Virus record (IMG/VR): IMGVR_UViG_3300044833_000035
Location: 1 to 20,831 of that record
DNA from: a virus
Strand: one strand, 5' to 3'
Length of the DNA: 20,831 bases
Shown here: piece by piece, positions 1 to 20,831 of the stretch
How positions within the stretch are numbered: position 1 is the stretch's first letter
How the letters are laid out: each line of letters starts with the position of its first letter
Translations under genes and position numbers: made by a program
The notes under the pieces: model-generated
Database searches by the model: none
The model's input: the letters and a program-made list of their open reading frames with translations, nothing else
Told to the model about the DNA's origin: nothing

Positions 1-340
1 GCTGGCCGGACACGATGCTGACCGAAGACAGAATAATGTCGCCGGAGGTTGCCGACACGGTCAGGCCGCTGATGATCAGGGTGCCGCCGCCGTCGATCGC
101 GGTCGTAACGGTCGCAGCCGCAGCCGTGCCAGACGCATCGGCGGTGGGGTCGGTCAGCGGGGTGCCCGAGAACGTCAGCACGCCGCCGGACACGGTGCCC
201 GCCGGGTTGGCCAGCGGAATGGAGCACAACAGGGTCGCGAGCGCTGCGGTGTAGATGTTGAGGAACGCGGCGGTGCCGAGCGCCGTGACCACGTCGGTCA
301 TGCGCGTGTTCTTCAGGGTCGTGTTGTAGGTGACAGCCAT
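1..340 (-). CDS. Phage structural protein, N-terminal part (runs off left edge)
   Basis: The reading frame is open from an ATG at 340 to the window edge, giving 113 residues and no stop, so the C-terminus lies outside. A very strong ribosome site (AAGGAGG, 7 bases before the ATG) fixes the start. The protein begins MAVTYNTTLKNTRM and continues with Ala/Thr/Gly-rich beta-prone sequence, including the segments GTVSGGVLTFSGTPL and GTLIISGLTV. Small proteins of this style occur near the tail-fibre end of phage genomes, but I cannot name a function. It lies 18 bases after the giant repeat protein and is probably co-transcribed with it. Role as a tail or virion accessory protein is inferred from position only. 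Confidence 0.8.
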   Translation of the reverse strand, partial: MAVTYNTTLKNTRMTDVVTALGTAAFLNIYTAALATLLCSIPLANPAGTVSGGVLTFSGTPLTDPTADASGTAAAATVTTAIDGGGTLIISGLTVSATSGDIILSSVSIVSGQ

Positions 341-358: not shown

Positions 359-3300
359 TCAGGTTACATAGAACGTACGGCGGGGGCGAACCCGAACAAC
401 GCCAGAGCCGAGAGCAAAGAACCGATCGGGGTTTTCCGATGCGACGAAGACGCCCGAGATCGGAGTGTTACCAATGGCTGCGAGAACGTCCGGCGCTTCA
501 GTAGAGGCCCAAGGACCTCCGGTGCCGGGCGTAGTGGCATGGATGAGAGCTATATCACGGGCCTCGGTCGAATTCCAAGACCCAGTTACAGGCACCCTAA
601 TGAATGCCGAAAACTGATCTTTGGCTTCGGTCGAAGTCCAAACAGCAACGATCGGAGTTGAGCCTGCCGCCGCGAACGTGTCCTTCGCTTCGGTGCTCAA
701 GAGATCGCCCCGGATGCCAGCGGCGCCGACGTAGCCTACACCGTGGAAGCTATCCGTTGCTTCGGTGCTCTCCCATGAGCCGGGATCAGCGGTGCCGACA
801 ACCAACTCGTCATAGCCCAACGTCCAGTGCTTCACCGAAACGGGGAAGGGCATCAGGTCGTTGTCGGTCGTCAAGATGTTCTGCGCGCGAACCTGCGCGT
901 ACACGGTCAGCGCTGACGCGAGGCCGCCTCCGGTGCTGGTGCTCTCCTTGACGAGCGTATAGCCGGGGGGCGGGGTCGAGATATCGTTGACCGTGCTACC
1001 TGCAACGACTGACGTCGCCCAACCGATCACGATCGAGTGGTAGTCAACGCGCGTCGGTGTGACAGCGGGCTCGGTCGTCAGCCATCCCGCCTGAAAACCG
1101 GCAGGCGGCGAGCCAGCAAACGAAGTCGCGCCGAAGTTGTAGGTCTGGATTGCCGACGTCGTTGTGCCGCCGGGCGACGCGTAGGGCAGCACAGCGCCGG
1201 GGGTTGGCCATACGATCTTGCCACCGTTGCCAGACGAGAGCGGCTGATGCCCCGTCAGCGCGGCGAGCGAGAACGTGGACATACTCAGGCCGCCGATATC
1301 GAACTGCGGCAAGCCGCTGTGCCCGTTGTAGGTCAGGCCTTGCGTAACGTTCCTAAACCATGCCTCTCCTGTATCGAAATTGAGGGCGATGCCGATGACG
1401 TCGTTGTCCACGGGCGCCGTGCCAAGGATGCCGACCTGCGCGCCGGCCGCCCAGATCGAGCCGTCACCACGAACGAAGATGCCGCCCTGTCCGCTCTGGA
1501 TCAGGCCGTCAGGCGTGTGCCCGGGATAGAGCAGACCGGTCCCGTATTCAGCGCCAGCAATGTGGTTGAACTTGACTTCGTAATAGATCGTCCCCGTCGT
1601 CTTGCCGCCGTTGTCGAGAGCAGTCGTCCAGTTGTGCGGGTCATTCGTGCCCGAGCTTGTAACGATCAGGCCTCCGCCGCTCAGCGTGACGTTGTTATCC
1701 TTGCTGCTATCGAAAATCAGATGGGTGCCTGATCCACCGCTCGAACTGAGCGCTCCGGTCGCAACAGGGCGCGTGAGCTTCGGCTGTGAGACCAGCGGGT
1801 TCTGCGCGACCAGCGCGAAGCCGATGATATAGGTGTTGTCCGAACTGGTCGGCGATGAATAGGTGACGTTGCTGTACGGACCAGCGTCGTTGATCGGTCC
1901 GCTCGCGAACTGGCCGAGAACGAATTCCCCGTTGTTCTGCTGCTGGCCGCTCTGGAATTGACGATTGACACCATTGAACGTGACGTTCTGATGGTTGAGC
2001 GCGGTGCCCCACATACCCATGCACCAAACGGGGTAGGTCTCATTCGCGCTCGACGTCGACACACCGGTCAGGGTCTGCGCAGCGCTGCCAGCGTGGATGC
2101 GCAGGACATCCGGGAGCGAGCCGTTCGTGTCGAATGGGTTGACGATATCGCACCCAAGGAATTTGGGCGAGATGCTGCCGACCATCGCGTCGATCGTGCC
2201 GTCCAAGGTCACGGTGATGTTAAGCGACGTCCCGACTGTGGCGTTGTTCGTATACCAGACCTCAGTCGTGAAGCCCTTCTGCGCGCCGAGATGGGTGTTG
2301 GTCAAATTCCAGCCTGAGCCTGCCGACTGTGTCGTGTAGCGGGCCCATGTATTGCCGTTGTTATCCGTGACCGACGTGACGCTGTTCGGGGTGGAGGTTG
2401 TCGAAACGAATGCGAAGGTCGCGAGCACAAGCGCGCGCTTCGTCAGGCTTGTGCCGCCGAACGCGATTGTCTGTGTCGTGCTGGAGACGGAGTTGACACC
2501 GAACGAATTCTCAATGCCATCCGAGGTAATACCGGTGGCCATCGCCCCGGAGTTGCCGCCGGACGAATACGGGTTGGTGTCTGAGAATGGCTGCGCGTAG
2601 TTGCCATTGAGGCCCTTGATAGTGAAACCAACTGCCTGCACAAGAGACGCGGAGGTACCTGAGCCGAACGTGTAGCTGAAGGGCTCGTTGACGACCGGGA
2701 GATGAGAGAAGGCCCACCATACCTCAGTGCGGGTGACGTCGCCTGCTTCATCCGGGCCGCCAAGCATGATGTCTTGGCAACGCCAAGTGAGCGTTGATCC
2801 TACGGTCCCTGAGCCAGTGATGGCCGTGATAGGTTTGATGACCGAGGGGTCGGCGCCTGCGGCCACCACGTTGTTGACCACTAGCATCAGCACGCGATCG
2901 AAACCGCCCGACGTCAGGTTGAAAGACGTGCTGCCGTTGACCACGACCGCGTCTTCGATCTCCAGCCGCTGAGTGCCGTGCAAGGAGATGGTGCCACTGC
3001 CAGAGGCGAGGAAGGTATCCTTGGCCTCAGTCGACGACCACGTGCCAGTCGGAGGCACGTACACCGTGCCTGCGTAACCGTCTTGCGCCTCGGTCGAAGC
3101 CCACGTGCCATTGAGACCGGACGCGCCGCTCGCGGACATCGTATCCGCGCTCCCGGTCGAGGCCCACGTCCCGGTCACCCCCGTGCTGCTGCTATCAGCC
3201 GTGATAGCGTCAACAGTGAGCCCCCACTTATCGCTGGAGTTAGTCCACCCGGCGGTGATGCTTGATTGCGTCGAAGAAACACTGAGAGCGGCCACGTCAC

Positions 3301-3892
3301 CATACGACCAATTAGAGCCGGCGTTGTTTGACCACGAATTGATCAGTGTCGCGGAGGAGCCGCCGATCAGCGGAGACGTAAAGGCTGCATTGTGGTCCGA
3401 ACACACCAGAGAGATGATAAGATCATCCGCCTTTGTAGTCGAAATGCCCGTGACCGAGGCGTTCGCCGAAGGAAACAGGCCAGTGTTCCCGGTCTTGGGC
3501 AGCGAGCCATTGCCGTCCCATGGATTGGTCGCGTCGTGCCCCGTGACGATGAAAGCGACAAAGCCCGCATCGTCACAGTTGCCGGTGCTGAGCGAGGCCG
3601 TGATCAGGTTGCTGGCATTCGATCCGGTCGAGATGGCCCACCAAATCTCGACTGTGTTCTTGCCCGCGCTGGTCGTATACTGCTGCTGAGATCGGCGGGT
3701 GTAGGTGTTACCGATAGTATCCGAGATGCCCGAAAAATTTTGAGTGTTGCTCGGGTGCTCAGAGTGCGCGACAACGACGATCAAGTTTCCAGTGGACGTA
3801 TTCAACGCCACCGAAGTAGCCGACGACACCCCCGAAAAGCCATGGGGTGACGTGCCTACGGAAACTGATGCGCCTACTACCGGAGAGGCCAT
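359..3892 (-). CDS. Giant modular tail/adhesin-like protein with W-x-STEA-x-D repeats and a SPRY-like domain
   Basis: 1177 residues; the ATG is preceded by GAGG at 9-base spacing. Visible layout: a beta-rich domain at about 22-232 with NPWDGNGSLP; three W-x-ST-x-A-x-D repeats at about 240-300; a second, more diverged beta domain at about 320-460; a third at about 470-697 with the matching NPFDTNGSLP; a SPRY/B30.2-like domain at about 735-905 (G-x-IYYEVKF, then DVIGIALNFDTGEAWFRN); another beta region at about 912-1035; six more repeats at about 1036-1163; and a basic tail ending RVRPRRTFYVT. There is no signal peptide or membrane segment. Its size, modular beta build and place at the distal end of the tail operon suggest a tail fibre or receptor-binding adhesin. 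Function is inference; no enzyme motif was seen. Confidence 0.85.
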   Translation of the reverse strand: MASPVVGASVSVGTSPHGFSGVSSATSVALNTSTGNLIVVVAHSEHPSNTQNFSGISDTIGNTYTRRSQQQYTTSAGKNTVEIWWAISTGSNASNLITASLSTGNCDDAGFVAFIVTGHDATNPWDGNGSLPKTGNTGLFPSANASVTGISTTKADDLIISLVCSDHNAAFTSPLIGGSSATLINSWSNNAGSNWSYGDVAALSVSSTQSSITAGWTNSSDKWGLTVDAITADSSSTGVTGTWASTGSADTMSASGASGLNGTWASTEAQDGYAGTVYVPPTGTWSSTEAKDTFLASGSGTISLHGTQRLEIEDAVVVNGSTSFNLTSGGFDRVLMLVVNNVVAAGADPSVIKPITAITGSGTVGSTLTWRCQDIMLGGPDEAGDVTRTEVWWAFSHLPVVNEPFSYTFGSGTSASLVQAVGFTIKGLNGNYAQPFSDTNPYSSGGNSGAMATGITSDGIENSFGVNSVSSTTQTIAFGGTSLTKRALVLATFAFVSTTSTPNSVTSVTDNNGNTWARYTTQSAGSGWNLTNTHLGAQKGFTTEVWYTNNATVGTSLNITVTLDGTIDAMVGSISPKFLGCDIVNPFDTNGSLPDVLRIHAGSAAQTLTGVSTSSANETYPVWCMGMWGTALNHQNVTFNGVNRQFQSGQQQNNGEFVLGQFASGPINDAGPYSNVTYSSPTSSDNTYIIGFALVAQNPLVSQPKLTRPVATGALSSSGGSGTHLIFDSSKDNNVTLSGGGLIVTSSGTNDPHNWTTALDNGGKTTGTIYYEVKFNHIAGAEYGTGLLYPGHTPDGLIQSGQGGIFVRGDGSIWAAGAQVGILGTAPVDNDVIGIALNFDTGEAWFRNVTQGLTYNGHSGLPQFDIGGLSMSTFSLAALTGHQPLSSGNGGKIVWPTPGAVLPYASPGGTTTSAIQTYNFGATSFAGSPPAGFQAGWLTTEPAVTPTRVDYHSIVIGWATSVVAGSTVNDISTPPPGYTLVKESTSTGGGLASALTVYAQVRAQNILTTDNDLMPFPVSVKHWTLGYDELVVGTADPGSWESTEATDSFHGVGYVGAAGIRGDLLSTEAKDTFAAAGSTPIVAVWTSTEAKDQFSAFIRVPVTGSWNSTEARDIALIHATTPGTGGPWASTEAPDVLAAIGNTPISGVFVASENPDRFFALGSGVVRVRPRRTFYVT
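404..787 (-). repeat. C-terminal block of six W-x-STEA-x-D protein repeats
   Basis: Residues about 1036-1163 of the 1177-residue protein hold six copies, roughly 20-24 residues apart. Cores are SWESTEATDSF, LLSTEAKDTF, VWTSTEAKDQF, SWNSTEARDIA, PWASTEAPDVL and a degenerate VFVASENPDRF. The DNA copies differ in codon use, so the repeat is conserved at protein level and is not a recent DNA duplication. Confidence 0.85.
1178..1690 (-). other. SPRY/concanavalin-like domain inside the giant tail protein
   Basis: Residues about 735-905 contain a tryptophan segment (DPHNWTTALD), then G-x-IYYEVKF, several glycine-spaced strands, GDGSIWAAGAQVG and DVIGIALNFDTGEAWFRN. This order resembles the SPRY/B30.2 fold: ligand-facing strands, followed by 'GD-x-IG-x-x-x-D-x-x-x-G-x-x-x-F'. 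Such domains bind protein or glycan partners. The assignment is by eye and moderate. Confidence 0.5.
2993..3175 (-). repeat. N-terminal block of three W-x-ST-x-A-x-D protein repeats
   Basis: Residues about 240-300 of the 1177-residue protein contain TWASTGSADTM, TWASTEAQDGY and TWSSTEAKDTF at about 21-residue spacing. The block links the first and second beta domains and matches the six-copy block near the C-terminus. Confidence 0.85.
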
Positions 3893-4245: not shown

Positions 4246-5103
4246 TTAGACAGGCAGCAACAGATGCGCCACAAGCGTGAACGAGATGTTCGCCTGCACG
4301 GTGTCGGGTGTGGCAGGCGCGATGAGCGTGATCACGTCGCCCGGGACACACTCGACGTCCGAAGGGAACGACACGCTGATGGTTTCAGGCGAGGGACCAT
4401 CGAACGTGATCGAGCCGATCGGATTTCCATTGTGGAAGAGATCGTACTCGACACTTGTGAGCGTCCCGGTCTGTTGGAAGATGCTGGAGCCGAGCAGGCC
4501 CGAAGGCAACAGCATGTTGTCGACGACCGCAAACTGCATCAGCGTCTCGGACGGGTTCGGCTGCCCGTCAATGTAGAGCACAAGCCGGACGAAGTCAGTG
4601 GCCCACTCCGTAGTATACGGGCTCGACGTCGACTTGACGACGCGCTGGCCGGGAATGCCTCCGGCCGGGAGCGCGTTCGATGGAGCTTCAAGGATCAGCA
4701 CGTAAAGCAGATGGCCCATGCCGTCCGTCGCGAATGGTGAGAACGTCGACCCGCTCGTATGCGCGACCGCGACGAGGTACAATTGCCCGTTATTGCTGAC
4801 AACATCGAATGCTGCGTATGTCGTTGTCGGCCGCCAAGCCTGCCGGGGGTTCCACTGTGCCGCCGGCAGAGTGAACGGGCCTAGCACACGATGGTCGGTC
4901 AGATGGACGAAGAAGGTATTCCCGCCGACCGGCTGTGTGATGTAGTCGATCCCGGCGCCCACTCGGAAGTTATCTTCGAGAACTTGCACCGCAGAGAACA
5001 GCGTCCAAAAATTGATATCGATCTGGGTGGCGCTAAGGTTCGAGCCTTGGCCACCGCCCCAGCGCGTTCCGTCCGTCGTGCGGTATGTAAGACTGGCGAC
5101 CAT
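4246..5103 (-). CDS. Tail fibre-like protein with fibre linker motif
   Basis: 285 residues; AGGAG lies 9 bases before the ATG. The N-terminus has a W-G-G-G-x-G-S-N-L-x-A-x-x-I-D-x-N-F-W pattern (residues 15-33), which I associate with distal-tail proteins of related phages. Residues 84-115 (WNPRQAW, then TYAAFDVVSNNGQLY) resemble the W...Y-x-x-x-D-V-V...Y pattern of short chitin/carbohydrate-binding type modules. Residues 146-169 (LPAGGIPGQRVVKS, then TTEW) match the common fibre linker 'GGxxGQxLxKxSxxxxxxxW'. The C-terminus (about 215-285) is beta-rich. Role as a structural or receptor-contacting tail fibre component is inferred from these motifs and from its place in the distal-tail operon. 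Confidence 0.8.
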   Translation of the reverse strand: MVASLTYRTTDGTRWGGGQGSNLSATQIDINFWTLFSAVQVLEDNFRVGAGIDYITQPVGGNTFFVHLTDHRVLGPFTLPAAQWNPRQAWRPTTTYAAFDVVSNNGQLYLVAVAHTSGSTFSPFATDGMGHLLYVLILEAPSNALPAGGIPGQRVVKSTSSPYTTEWATDFVRLVLYIDGQPNPSETLMQFAVVDNMLLPSGLLGSSIFQQTGTLTSVEYDLFHNGNPIGSITFDGPSPETISVSFPSDVECVPGDVITLIAPATPDTVQANISFTLVAHLLLPV

Positions 5104-19109: not shown

Positions 19110-20117
19110 CTATCGTGGAGAAGCCGAAACGAATGCCTGTCGCATGACGAGATAGCCGCTCTGGAGAGGATGCAAACCATCTGGCCCGAGGAGGGCGCTA
19201 TTGCCGATCAGCGCGTCAGCGTCCACCAAATAGACATTCAACCCGAAGCTTTGCGCCGTCGTGACATTGGCCGCGATCAGGGTTTTGTATCGAGTGTTCT
19301 GCGCCGTAGTCGTGCCGTTCGCGGTATTGGCCGCAGCGGTGTAGTCATGGGTGTTGGCGACGACTACGAGTGGATCAGCGATGTTGACAACAGAGCCGTA
19401 GCCCGCCACGAACCCTATGTAGACTACATTTGATGCGCTCGTAGCAGAGACCACAGTGATGACCACGGTGTGCGTTGTGTTCGAGAGGCCGGTGAATGTC
19501 TGAGCGAATGGACCAGAGGTAAGCCCGATATTAGACGGGACCAAAGCTCCCGGCGGGGTCGCGTTGAACGTCCCTTTGCTGACACCGTCGATTGTGACTG
19601 AGAACTGACCGGCCTGCGAGTTATTCCAATAGCCAACGACAGCGACTGACGTTCCTGTAACCGAGCACGTCAGGGTCGATCCATTCGTCGTAGACGATCG
19701 CCCTTTAGGGTCTGTGGTCGAAGTCATGTTGGCCCACGTGCCCGCGGCAGTCATGCTCTGCGCACGAACTTTGTTCGCCCCTTCTTTCGTGGCCAGATGT
19801 AGGACGAGAGCAAGATGTCCCAGCTGTGTAGTTGTCTCGCGGTTAGTAATTCCCCCGCCGAGATTTTTATCGTTGGTGCCAAGCCATAGCGGATAGATGT
19901 CCCCCTGCGCAGGATTGAACATAAACGTATCAGGGGATTGATCGGCCACGGTGTTGCCGCCGCGCGCAGTGATGTTGGCCTCCCATCCGTAATAGTCGGC
20001 TAGCACCGGACCAAGGCCATTGAACATCAGGCTATCGCCAATCACAGCGCGCATGGTCCCCGATGACCCTACTACTGCGCCAGCGCTGGCACTCGTATAG
20101 AATGCAGTGGATGCCAT
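19110..20117 (-). CDS. SGNH/GDSL-family hydrolase with inserted beta domain, 335 aa
   Basis: Esterase-type fold that removes acyl groups, for example acetyl from surface polysaccharide (family role; substrate unknown). Block I is AVIGDSLMFNG with the nucleophile Ser29. Block II is ARGGNT (Gly53/54). Block III is LWLGTNDKN (Asn82). Block V is DGLHPLQSGY with Asp313 and His316. All four SGNH residues are therefore visible. Between blocks III and V a beta-rich insertion (about 120-235; GSTLTCSVTGTSVAVVGYW, then FSVTIDGVSKGTF and TTHTVVITVVSA) resembles a carbohydrate-binding sandwich. There is no signal peptide, consistent with a virion component. The ATG directly follows the collagen-like gene's TAA, so the two are probably co-translated. 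It is placed before the capsid gene. Confidence 0.85.
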   Translation of the reverse strand: MASTAFYTSASAGAVVGSSGTMRAVIGDSLMFNGLGPVLADYYGWEANITARGGNTVADQSPDTFMFNPAQGDIYPLWLGTNDKNLGGGITNRETTTQLGHLALVLHLATKEGANKVRAQSMTAAGTWANMTSTTDPKGRSSTTNGSTLTCSVTGTSVAVVGYWNNSQAGQFSVTIDGVSKGTFNATPPGALVPSNIGLTSGPFAQTFTGLSNTTHTVVITVVSATSASNVVYIGFVAGYGSVVNIADPLVVVANTHDYTAAANTANGTTTAQNTRYKTLIAANVTTAQSFGLNVYLVDADALIGNSALLGPDGLHPLQSGYLVMRQAFVSASPR

Positions 20118-20831
20118 TTATGCTGCGATCTCTTCAACGCAGAGGGCGACTACGCTGACCCCACCAAAAATGCGGGCCGACGACGTCCCGTTGATCCCAA
20201 GGGTAGTACCGCTCGCTGTGCCTGCGCGGACTGCGAGGGTCTGGGTCGAGGTCGATCCCGGAACGAATTCGTGCTCCAAAATAAGAAGCTGAGAAAATCC
20301 TGCGCTCGTGGACGAGTAGTGAGCCGCCAGCGCATTGGCCGTGCTGTTTACGAAGAGTGCTATAGCGATGTTGTCGGCCGCGGCGGGAGCGCCGACCATC
20401 GAGAACCGCACTCGCAACTTGTTCGATGTATTTTTCGGCGTGATCGACACCGAGATAATCTGCGTCCCCTCCGTATTTTGTGGGATCGTATCATCGACCG
20501 GGATCACAGCAGTCGTTGTCGAATAGGTAGCGACCTCAGCGAATGCACTGTTGACCACTGACCCTGCGCTGACCACGGCGGGCGGCCCCGGAATGTACGA
20601 CTGCTCGCCGTCATTGCCATCATCGCCGGGTGGGCCCATGAGACCTTGAGTGCCTTGGATACCTTGAATGCCTTGGACGCCTTGCGTGCCCGGAATGGTA
20701 GGCGCGTCTTCGCCGTCATTGCCATCATTGCCGGGAATGACGAAGCCTTGCAGACCTTGGATGCCTTGCGTGCCTTGCTGGCCCGGGATGCCTTGCGGGC
20801 CGGGAATGATAGGCGCGTCTTCGCCGTCATC
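20118..20831 (-). CDS. Collagen-like phage fibre protein, C-terminal part (runs off right edge)
   Basis: The frame is open to the right edge; 237 residues are visible, and the N-terminus lies outside, so the internal ATG at 20639 is not the start. Visible residues 1 to about 90 are Gly-x-y repeats (GPQGIPGQQGTQGIQGLQG, GTQGVQGIQGIQGTQGL) broken by an acidic unit (DG-x-DGEDAP-x-IPG). The last 145 residues form a beta-rich head: AVIPVDDTIPQNTEGTQII, SVSITPKNTSNKLRVRF, then a terminal ARIFGGVSVVALCVEEIAA. This 'IP-x-DDTIPQ-x-x-EG ... ITPK-x-x-x-x-KL' domain follows collagen stalks in many phages and probably trimerises them. Most likely a fibre; its place in the head module suggests a head or neck fibre. 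Confidence 0.85.
   Translation of the reverse strand, partial: DDGEDAPIIPGPQGIPGQQGTQGIQGLQGFVIPGNDGNDGEDAPTIPGTQGVQGIQGIQGTQGLMGPPGDDGNDGEQSYIPGPPAVVSAGSVVNSAFAEVATYSTTTAVIPVDDTIPQNTEGTQIISVSITPKNTSNKLRVRFSMVGAPAAADNIAIALFVNSTANALAAHYSSTSAGFSQLLILEHEFVPGSTSTQTLAVRAGTASGTTLGINGTSSARIFGGVSVVALCVEEIAA
20592..20831 (-). repeat. Collagen-like coding repeats
   Basis: The DNA unit around GGCGCGTCTTCGCCGTCAT (plus strand) recurs at 111 bases (37 codons), with a diverged copy of its inner part 105 bases (35 codons) further left. Between copies lie short GCCTTG/ACCTTG units encoding Q-G. Such tracts expand and contract easily. Confidence 0.8.

What the first reader, a model, noticed from the sequence alone, without database searches (positions are those of the whole stretch)
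404..3175. Nine W-x-STEA-x-D repeats in two separated blocks
A short repeat (consensus about G-x-W-x-STEA-x-D-x-F-x-A-x-G) occurs three times after the first beta domain and six times at the C-terminus. The codons have diverged while the core residues are kept, so the protein motif is under selection. I know of no described function. It could be a beta-hairpin or spiral stalk that sets fibre length or carries binding sites.
Basis: partly seen in the sequence, partly recalled or inferred. Interest (0 to 1): 0.6.

Follow-up and report, generated by a model that had tools for sequence, protein, structure and literature searches.

The report
21-residue repeat in phage fibre proteins
A large surface protein of an uncultured bacterial virus carries nine copies of a 21-residue repeat that also occurs, in 3 to about 36 copies, in hundreds of other uncultured viruses, nearly always beside a gene for a small 'garland' protein that in known phages wraps around the fibres gripping the host, so the repeat looks like an undescribed, length-adjustable building block of viral attachment fibres.

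Summary
ORF 359-3892(-), 1177 aa, has three plus six copies of a repeat with a 21-residue period (seven STEA-x-D cores, two degenerate); shuffles give 0.002 cores per protein. Synonymous sites among copies are nearly saturated while the core is constrained.

The repeat is not local. DNA-pattern scans plus a profile found about 2,500 copies in 245 proteins, nearly all from uncultured viruses, with 22-24-residue spacings arising only in one loop. Asp11 is 99.8% and Glu8 95% conserved. Close relatives differ by whole repeats (63, 126, 189 nt). Pfam and NCBIfam do not know it; PHROG 38872 (unknown function) covers many arrays.

Main new result: a small gene, PHROG 3758-like (window 2-340), accompanies the repeat gene in 80 of 87 loci with at least 3 kb of upstream DNA. 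Its profile matches the garland proteins of Agrobacterium phages Milano and 7-7-1 (solved chain 9rkv_A), which encircle the tail fibres. Used blind, this partner gene led to two further repeat proteins in named phages.

Best reading: a modular virion fibre whose beta-rich, variable-length arrays work with a garland protein, perhaps as its docking string. The fold (AlphaFold2: two-strand beta-solenoid, pLDDT 68) is unproven; AF2 over-predicts solenoids for repeats.

The parts
359..3892 (-). repeat-bearing virion protein, 1177 aa (P0001)
   Evidence: no Pfam, NCBIfam or PDB-sequence match; only a weak PHROG hit, E 0.012
3188..3892 (-). N-terminal beta-sandwich domain D1, aa 1-235
   Evidence: profile; AF2 model, core pLDDT 80-90; nearest predicted viral structures include mycobacteriophage minor tail proteins
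3113..3175 (-). repeat copy 1 (TGTWASTGSADTMSASGASGL), degenerate core
   Evidence: profile 13.0 bits
3050..3112 (-). repeat copy 2 (NGTWASTEAQDGYAGTVYVPP)
   Evidence: 17.7 bits
2987..3049 (-). repeat copy 3 (TGTWSSTEAKDTFLASGSGTI)
   Evidence: 25.2 bits
2507..2938 (-). second copy of the D1-type beta domain, aa 319-462
   Evidence: profile
2006..2497 (-). third copy of the D1-type beta domain, aa 466-629
   Evidence: profile
722..784 (-). repeat copy 4 (PGSWESTEATDSFHGVGYVGA)
   Evidence: 12.9 bits
650..712 (-). repeat copy 5 (RGDLLSTEAKDTFAAAGSTPI)
   Evidence: 24.9 bits
587..649 (-). repeat copy 6 (VAVWTSTEAKDQFSAFIRVPV)
   Evidence: 15.6 bits
524..586 (-). repeat copy 7 (TGSWNSTEARDIALIHATTPG)
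   Evidence: 17.2 bits
458..520 (-). repeat copy 8 (GGPWASTEAPDVLAAIGNTPI)
   Evidence: 22.0 bits
395..457 (-). repeat copy 9 (SGVFVASENPDRFFALGSGVV), degenerate core
   Evidence: 8.5 bits
362..394 (-). C-terminal basic/hydrophobic tail (RVRPRRTFYVT), conserved with L328, L352 and L298 (RVRRRRTLFVS, RVRRRRTVIVA)
   Evidence: alignments
2..340 (-). partner gene: garland-family protein (PHROG 3758-like), truncated by the contig end
   Evidence: PHROG 3758, E 1.9e-5; its profile matches Milano gp125/gp127 and both 7-7-1 garland-type proteins

Best explanation
The ORF is a virion surface fibre or adhesin of a siphovirus-like phage. It has probably host-facing beta domains and two arrays of a 21-residue repeat. 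Each repeat is a fixed unit of about 16 residues (strand G-x-L/W-x-x, arc T-E-A-x-D, strand T-x-x-x-x-G) followed by a variable loop. Arrays act as spacer or docking segments whose length changes by gain and loss of whole repeats. They work as a two-gene module with a small garland-family protein encoded next door; in phages Milano and 7-7-1 such proteins form a chain around the tail-fibre tips. Shown: the repeat and its spread, whole-repeat indels, conserved core, linkage to the partner, partner homology to garland proteins. Inferred: virion location, adhesion, and physical contact between repeat and garland protein. Most likely contact: the arrays are, or help form, the fibre segment on which garland dimers sit.
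For: Nine in-register copies. 245 proteins and about 2,500 copies elsewhere, spacing 21 in most pairs and insertions confined to positions 18-22 in the examples inspected. In units selected only by their flanks, D11 99.8%, E8 95%. Whole-repeat indels at 91-100% DNA identity. Gene order in the window: capsid, head-tail adaptor, tail tube, tape measure, tail-fibre-like gene, repeat gene, garland gene. Four relatives keep the same slot while the N-terminal part varies, giving proteins of 183 to 1177 aa. Partner within 3 kb in 80 of 87 loci holding at least 3 kb upstream, within 5 kb in 57 of 59 holding 5 kb, and in no locus that matched the genome scan by chance; only 41 of 50,697 isolate phages show a tblastn match to one partner sequence. 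Blind test: partner hits led to repeat proteins in Rhizobium phage RHph_TM3_14A and Caudoviricetes ctvy9321. Partner homologous to garland proteins, described around fibre ends in PMC10811340 and PMC12796354.
Against: No virion proteomics or structure of any repeat protein was found. Garland-family proteins exist without the repeat (7-7-1, Milano, mycobacteriophage Charlie, Vibrio K354), so the repeat is not their general string. In Curvibacter P26059A and Rhizobium RHph_TM3_14A the module lies beside portal or capsid genes, so some may sit on the head. Loci were found by patterns demanding T-E-x-x-D, so the counts are not population estimates. The isolate base rate comes from one tblastn query and is less sensitive than the iterated profile used on the loci.
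Confidence: 0.6

Rival explanations
1. Self-folding stalk: each repeat is one coil of a two-strand beta-solenoid, so the array is a rod growing about 0.48 nm per repeat, with Glu and Asp of TEA-x-D stacked at one edge, possibly with Ca2+.
For: AF2 model of the six-copy array: pLDDT 67.9, pTM 0.57, two strands per repeat; the better structural matches include beta-helices and an RTX beta-roll (3p4g Z 9.8, rmsd 4.1, 134 aligned; 7usl Z 9.7, rmsd 2.9, 121 aligned). Pairs 2:17, 4:15, 6:13 and 8:11 around the TEA-x-D arc covary across proteins, and the combination of a bulky residue at 6 with one at 15 is nearly absent, as expected if the two strands face each other.
Against: Foldseek finds no significant match. 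AF2 gives confident solenoids even for scrambled repeats, including a Glu-stacked mucin-derived one (PMC11795689). After removing protein-level composition there is no clear same-position correlation between neighbouring repeats, which stacked side-chain ladders might produce.
Confidence: 0.3
2. Trimeric beta fibre shaft of the triple beta-spiral type: two strands per repeat with a fixed turn and a variable surface loop, about 1.3 nm per repeat.
For: Fixed strand-turn-strand unit plus one loop of variable length; place in the tail-fibre region; phage fibres are commonly trimers (general knowledge).
Against: No oligomer could be predicted; the conserved acidic T-E-x-x-D turn differs from the Gly/Pro turn of adenovirus shafts (general knowledge).
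Confidence: 0.15
3. String for garland beads: the repeats are unfolded docking motifs, each binding one garland dimer, so the repeat number sets the number of beads.
For: The repeat nearly always comes with a garland-family gene, while the garland family often occurs without the repeat. In the related A511 connector an extended chain of another protein threads dimers like beads, and Milano's string is unidentified (PMC10811340). Repeat pLDDT falls to about 50 when the array is modelled beside D1, although that alignment is shallow.
Against: Adjacent genes need not bind each other. The six-copy block is predicted with regular strands on its own. Binding was not testable here.
Confidence: 0.3
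4. Low-complexity S/T/A/G-rich sequence without specific function, spread by replication slippage.
For: Composition is biased and whole-repeat indels occur.
Against: The extra segments are only about 60-65% identical in DNA to their neighbours in two of the three clean indel pairs, pN is far below pS at the core, D11 is 99.8% conserved, and linkage to one partner gene is above 90%.
Confidence: 0.03

Closest known systems
PHROG 38872 (unknown function)
   Same: Matches 46 of 78 six-repeat arrays from the related loci, best E 1.9e-19.
   Different: No function recorded; the window's own array does not reach E 0.01.
Curvibacter phage P26059A ASJ79159.1 (hypothetical protein)
   Same: 15 copies of the repeat, almost all at 21-residue spacing, with the garland-family gene two genes upstream.
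   Different: No Trp, no large beta domains; lies between portal and protease genes.
Garland proteins of Agrobacterium phages Milano (gp125, gp127) and 7-7-1 (9rkv_A)
   Same: Same sequence family as the partner gene at 2-340.
   Different: Those phages have no STEA-x-D repeat by profile in the stretches examined; the neighbour in 7-7-1, gp104, is a different protein.
RTX beta-roll and Ca-dependent beta-helix (7usl_C, 3p4g_B)
   Same: Overall shape of the AF2 model of the array.
   Different: 21-residue period with T-E-x-x-D instead of GGxGxDxUx nonapeptides; no significant Foldseek match.
Triple beta-spiral shafts (adenovirus fibre)
   Same: Strand, turn, strand, variable loop organisation (inference).
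   Different: Acidic turn; trimer not tested.

Membership tests
Garland / fibre-network connector family (partner gene 2-340) | Sequence homology to known garland proteins | tested here: met
   Alignment profile finds 9rkv_A at E 4e-11 and 44nx_B at 2e-12; the iterated profile finds both Milano and both 7-7-1 garland-type genes at E about 1e-12 to 1e-20; 9rkv_A sequence agrees with 7-7-1_000103 over the aligned part and in length
Garland / fibre-network connector family (partner gene 2-340) | Dimers forming a chain around fibre tips | not testable with these tools
   No complex prediction available
Beta-solenoid proteins | One coil per repeat, stacked in parallel | tested here: inconclusive
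   AF2 model pLDDT 68; no significant Foldseek match; AF2 bias for repeats; no neighbour-repeat ladder signal
RTX calcium beta-roll | GGxGxDxUx nonapeptide repeats | tested here: not met
   Period 21; consensus [TS]G[TS]LAxTEAxDTxxxxG
Collagen-like phage fibre | Gly-X-Y triplets | tested here: not met
   No Pfam match for the repeat protein; the separate collagen-like ORF is 20118-20831
Triple beta-spiral fibre shaft | Homotrimer with interleaved strands | not testable with these tools
   No multimer prediction offered
PHROG 38872 | Profile match of the array | tested here: inconclusive
   46 of 78 arrays match; the window's array does not at E 0.01

The most novel reading that the evidence does not exclude
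The STEA-x-D repeat is the missing string of a beads-on-a-string virion organelle: a tandem docking motif onto which garland-protein dimers thread, with phages tuning the size of the garland around their fibres by adding or deleting 21-residue repeats.
Probability: 0.28. Interest if true: 0.78.

Novelty: new variant of a known kind. Interest (0 to 1): 0.6.

Why it matters
A repeat family present in well over 200 mostly uncultured virus contigs, some over 240 kb long, has no described function and was recognised in only six of 50,697 isolate phage records here (one by direct search, five through the partner gene). Tying it to garland proteins gives it a testable role in host attachment, offers a marker pair for finding attachment modules in viral dark matter, and gives cultured phages (Curvibacter P26059A, Rhizobium RHph_TM3_14A) in which array length, garland and adsorption can be measured.

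Tried and rejected
Whole-protein search of viral contigs with P0001 found nothing, so degenerate DNA patterns at 63-nt spacing were used instead. Of 118 genome loci matching the three-unit pattern only about ten are true repeats; the rest are chance matches, so they are not counted as bacterial hosts of the repeat. Plasmid search: no match. Brevundimonas giant-phage hits at E 8-9 hold a different, cadherin-like repeat and were dropped. Mean-field DCA is dominated by same-position pairs that reflect relatedness within an array; after removing protein means, only short-range volume compensation stood out (13-15, 4-6), so DCA is not used as proof of stacking. AF2 solenoid not accepted at face value. 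D1 found no significant PDB match (best VIA Z 6.2). Searching D1 alone converged on the window protein itself until seeded with relatives. The P26059A paper holds no proteomics for the gene. Paper searches found no description of the repeat.

Full report
WHAT IS THERE. The window is a 20,831-base uncultured-virus record. All main genes read on the minus strand: collagen-like ORF, SGNH/GDSL-like ORF, major capsid protein (PHROG 247, 1e-99), head-tail adaptor, Ig-like major tail protein, tape measure, two large tail-tip ORFs, a tail-fibre-like ORF with a CBM5/12 match, the repeat gene (359-3892) and, at the contig edge, a PHROG 3758-like gene. The capsid protein is 54-56% identical to Roseobacter RDJL3, Sphingomonas MMDA13 and Xanthomonas and Pseudomonas siphophages.

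THE REPEAT. Nine copies, three after the first beta domain and six at the C-terminus, with spacings 21, 21 and 24, 21, 21, 22, 21. A position-specific matrix built mainly from other viruses recovers exactly these nine. Shuffled versions of the protein have on average 0.002 STEA-x-D cores. Between copies synonymous sites differ at 77-78%, while nonsynonymous sites of S-T-E-A-D differ at 21%. The copies are therefore old and held by selection at the protein level.

ELSEWHERE. Whole-protein searches found only Curvibacter phage P26059A, whose 394-aa protein is 15 such repeats, 13 of 14 spacings being exactly 21. After scoring there are 245 proteins on 242 loci, about 2,516 copies; spacings 21 (1552), 24 (302), 23 (119), 22 (92). 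In every example inspected the extra residues fall between positions 18 and 22, so the unit is about 16 fixed residues plus one variable loop. Among 964 units chosen only because both flanking units match, D11 is 99.8%, E8 95% (Asp 4%), T7 79%. True arrays also occur on contigs of Brevundimonas Root1279, Methylobacterium terricola, Sinorhizobium, Herminiimonas and several MAGs, most likely prophages (inference). No plasmid match. PHROG 38872, of unknown function, matches 46 of 78 arrays; Pfam and NCBIfam report no repeat family.

COPY NUMBER AND MODULARITY. L015 and L148 (91% DNA identity) differ by two 63-nt segments, L015 and L045 by 189 nt, L063 and L350 (about 100% identical) by 126 nt; the segments in the first two pairs are only about 60-65% identical to their neighbours, so simple assembly collapse is unlikely there, whereas in L063/L350 the segment is 99% identical to its neighbour and an artefact is possible. 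L013 and L070 (99%) differ by one 696-nt insertion, about the size of a beta domain. In four relatives of the window (L296, L298, L328, L352) the same slot between the fibre-like gene and the garland gene holds proteins of 318, 389 and 183 aa (the L352 protein is identical to that of L328), against 1177 here, with a conserved C-terminus G-x-GV-x-RVR-x-RRT-x-x-V in three of them (the L352 slot itself was read only as far as the partner gene). D1-type beta domains precede repeats in six relatives.

THE PARTNER. A profile started from window 2-340 converged on 168 sequences, none of them a repeat protein, all E below 1e-16. It lies on the same strand within 3 kb in 80 of 87 loci with at least 3 kb of upstream DNA, and within 5 kb in 57 of 59 with at least 5 kb. 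No genome locus that had matched the pattern by chance carries it. In 50,697 isolate phages one partner sequence finds 41 records, best of all P26059A, whose gene 0005 is two genes upstream of its repeat gene. Looking next to the partner in the other hits revealed repeat arrays in Rhizobium phage RHph_TM3_14A, with identical copies in three sister phages, and in Caudoviricetes ctvy9321, but not in mycobacteriophage Charlie or Vibrio K354. A partner alignment matches two solved chains, 44nx_B and 9rkv_A. 9RKV is the tail-fibre model of phage 7-7-1 (PMC12796354), and chain A agrees with 7-7-1_000103, 141 aa, next to the long tail fibre gene. That paper describes 36 homodimeric garland proteins around the lower parts of the fibres; equating 9rkv_A with the garland protein is my inference from size, copy number and gene position. 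The profile also finds Milano gp125 and gp127, named as garland proteins with a T4 gp8/A511 gp105-like fold and a beads-on-a-string arrangement whose string is unknown (PMC10811340).

STRUCTURE. AF2 of the six-copy block with 78 sequences: pLDDT 67.9, pTM 0.57, two strands per repeat around TEA-x-D. Foldseek found nothing significant; the second-look aligner's rows are largely beta-solenoids and beta-rolls, at Z up to about 10. D1 plus three repeats: confident beta-sandwich core, repeats near pLDDT 50; similar predicted viral structures include mycobacteriophage minor tail proteins. PMC11795689 reports that AF2 gives confident solenoids to random repeat sequences, though it suggests the bias may matter mainly for near-perfect repeats, which these are not. 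Independent of AF2, covariation across proteins links positions 2:17, 4:15, 6:13 and 8:11, and bulky residues pair 4 with 15 (308 units) or 6 with 13 (135) while 6 with 15 is nearly absent (5). This supports two strands facing each other across the TEA-x-D arc but does not separate hairpin, solenoid coil and partner-bound string. It is partly a protein-level signal.

MECHANISM. Shown: a conserved modular repeat, array-length change by whole units, beta domains in the same proteins, near-constant linkage to a garland-family gene. Inferred: virion location, adhesion and physical contact. The one-way dependence (repeat nearly always with partner; partner often without repeat) suggests the repeat needs the garland protein, either as docking string or as fibre segment that the garland clasps.

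VERDICT. The interpretation as a structural or binding repeat is partly supported. It is an undescribed repeat in a known kind of object, phage attachment fibres.

Noticed in passing
L296, L298, L328 downstream of the repeat and garland genes: Relatives carry sugar-nucleotide genes next to the tail module: GDP-mannose 4,6-dehydratase (L296, L328), an epimerase and a DUF5672 protein (L296), plus unannotated ORFs. Phage-encoded glycosylation of the Thr/Ser-rich fibre or of the host surface is conceivable.
   Followed up: partly
L296:6309-8345: The GDP-mannose dehydratase ORF is interrupted by a LAGLIDADG-type insert, intein-like.
   Followed up: no
window 362-394 and C-termini of relatives: Repeat proteins end in several recurring short tails: R-R-T-h-x-V, acidic-then-LLLL, W-T-P repeats, R-T-V-x-V-x-A-E nonamers. 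They may be virion anchors.
   Followed up: no
L373:4336-5553 (mycobacteriophage Charlie gp22): The minor tail protein two genes upstream of Charlie's garland-family gene has its own, different G-x-L-x-A-type repeat of roughly 22-24 residues, a possible analogue.
   Followed up: no
window 4246-5103: Tail-fibre-like ORF with a CBM5/12 match (E 1.4e-6) and PHROG 7049.
   Followed up: no
window 19110-20831: An SGNH/GDSL-like ORF and a collagen-like ORF lie upstream of the capsid gene, an unusual place for such proteins.
   Followed up: no
L013 and L070: Two nearly identical phages differ by one 696-nt insert, about the size of a beta domain, a recent domain gain or loss.
   Followed up: partly
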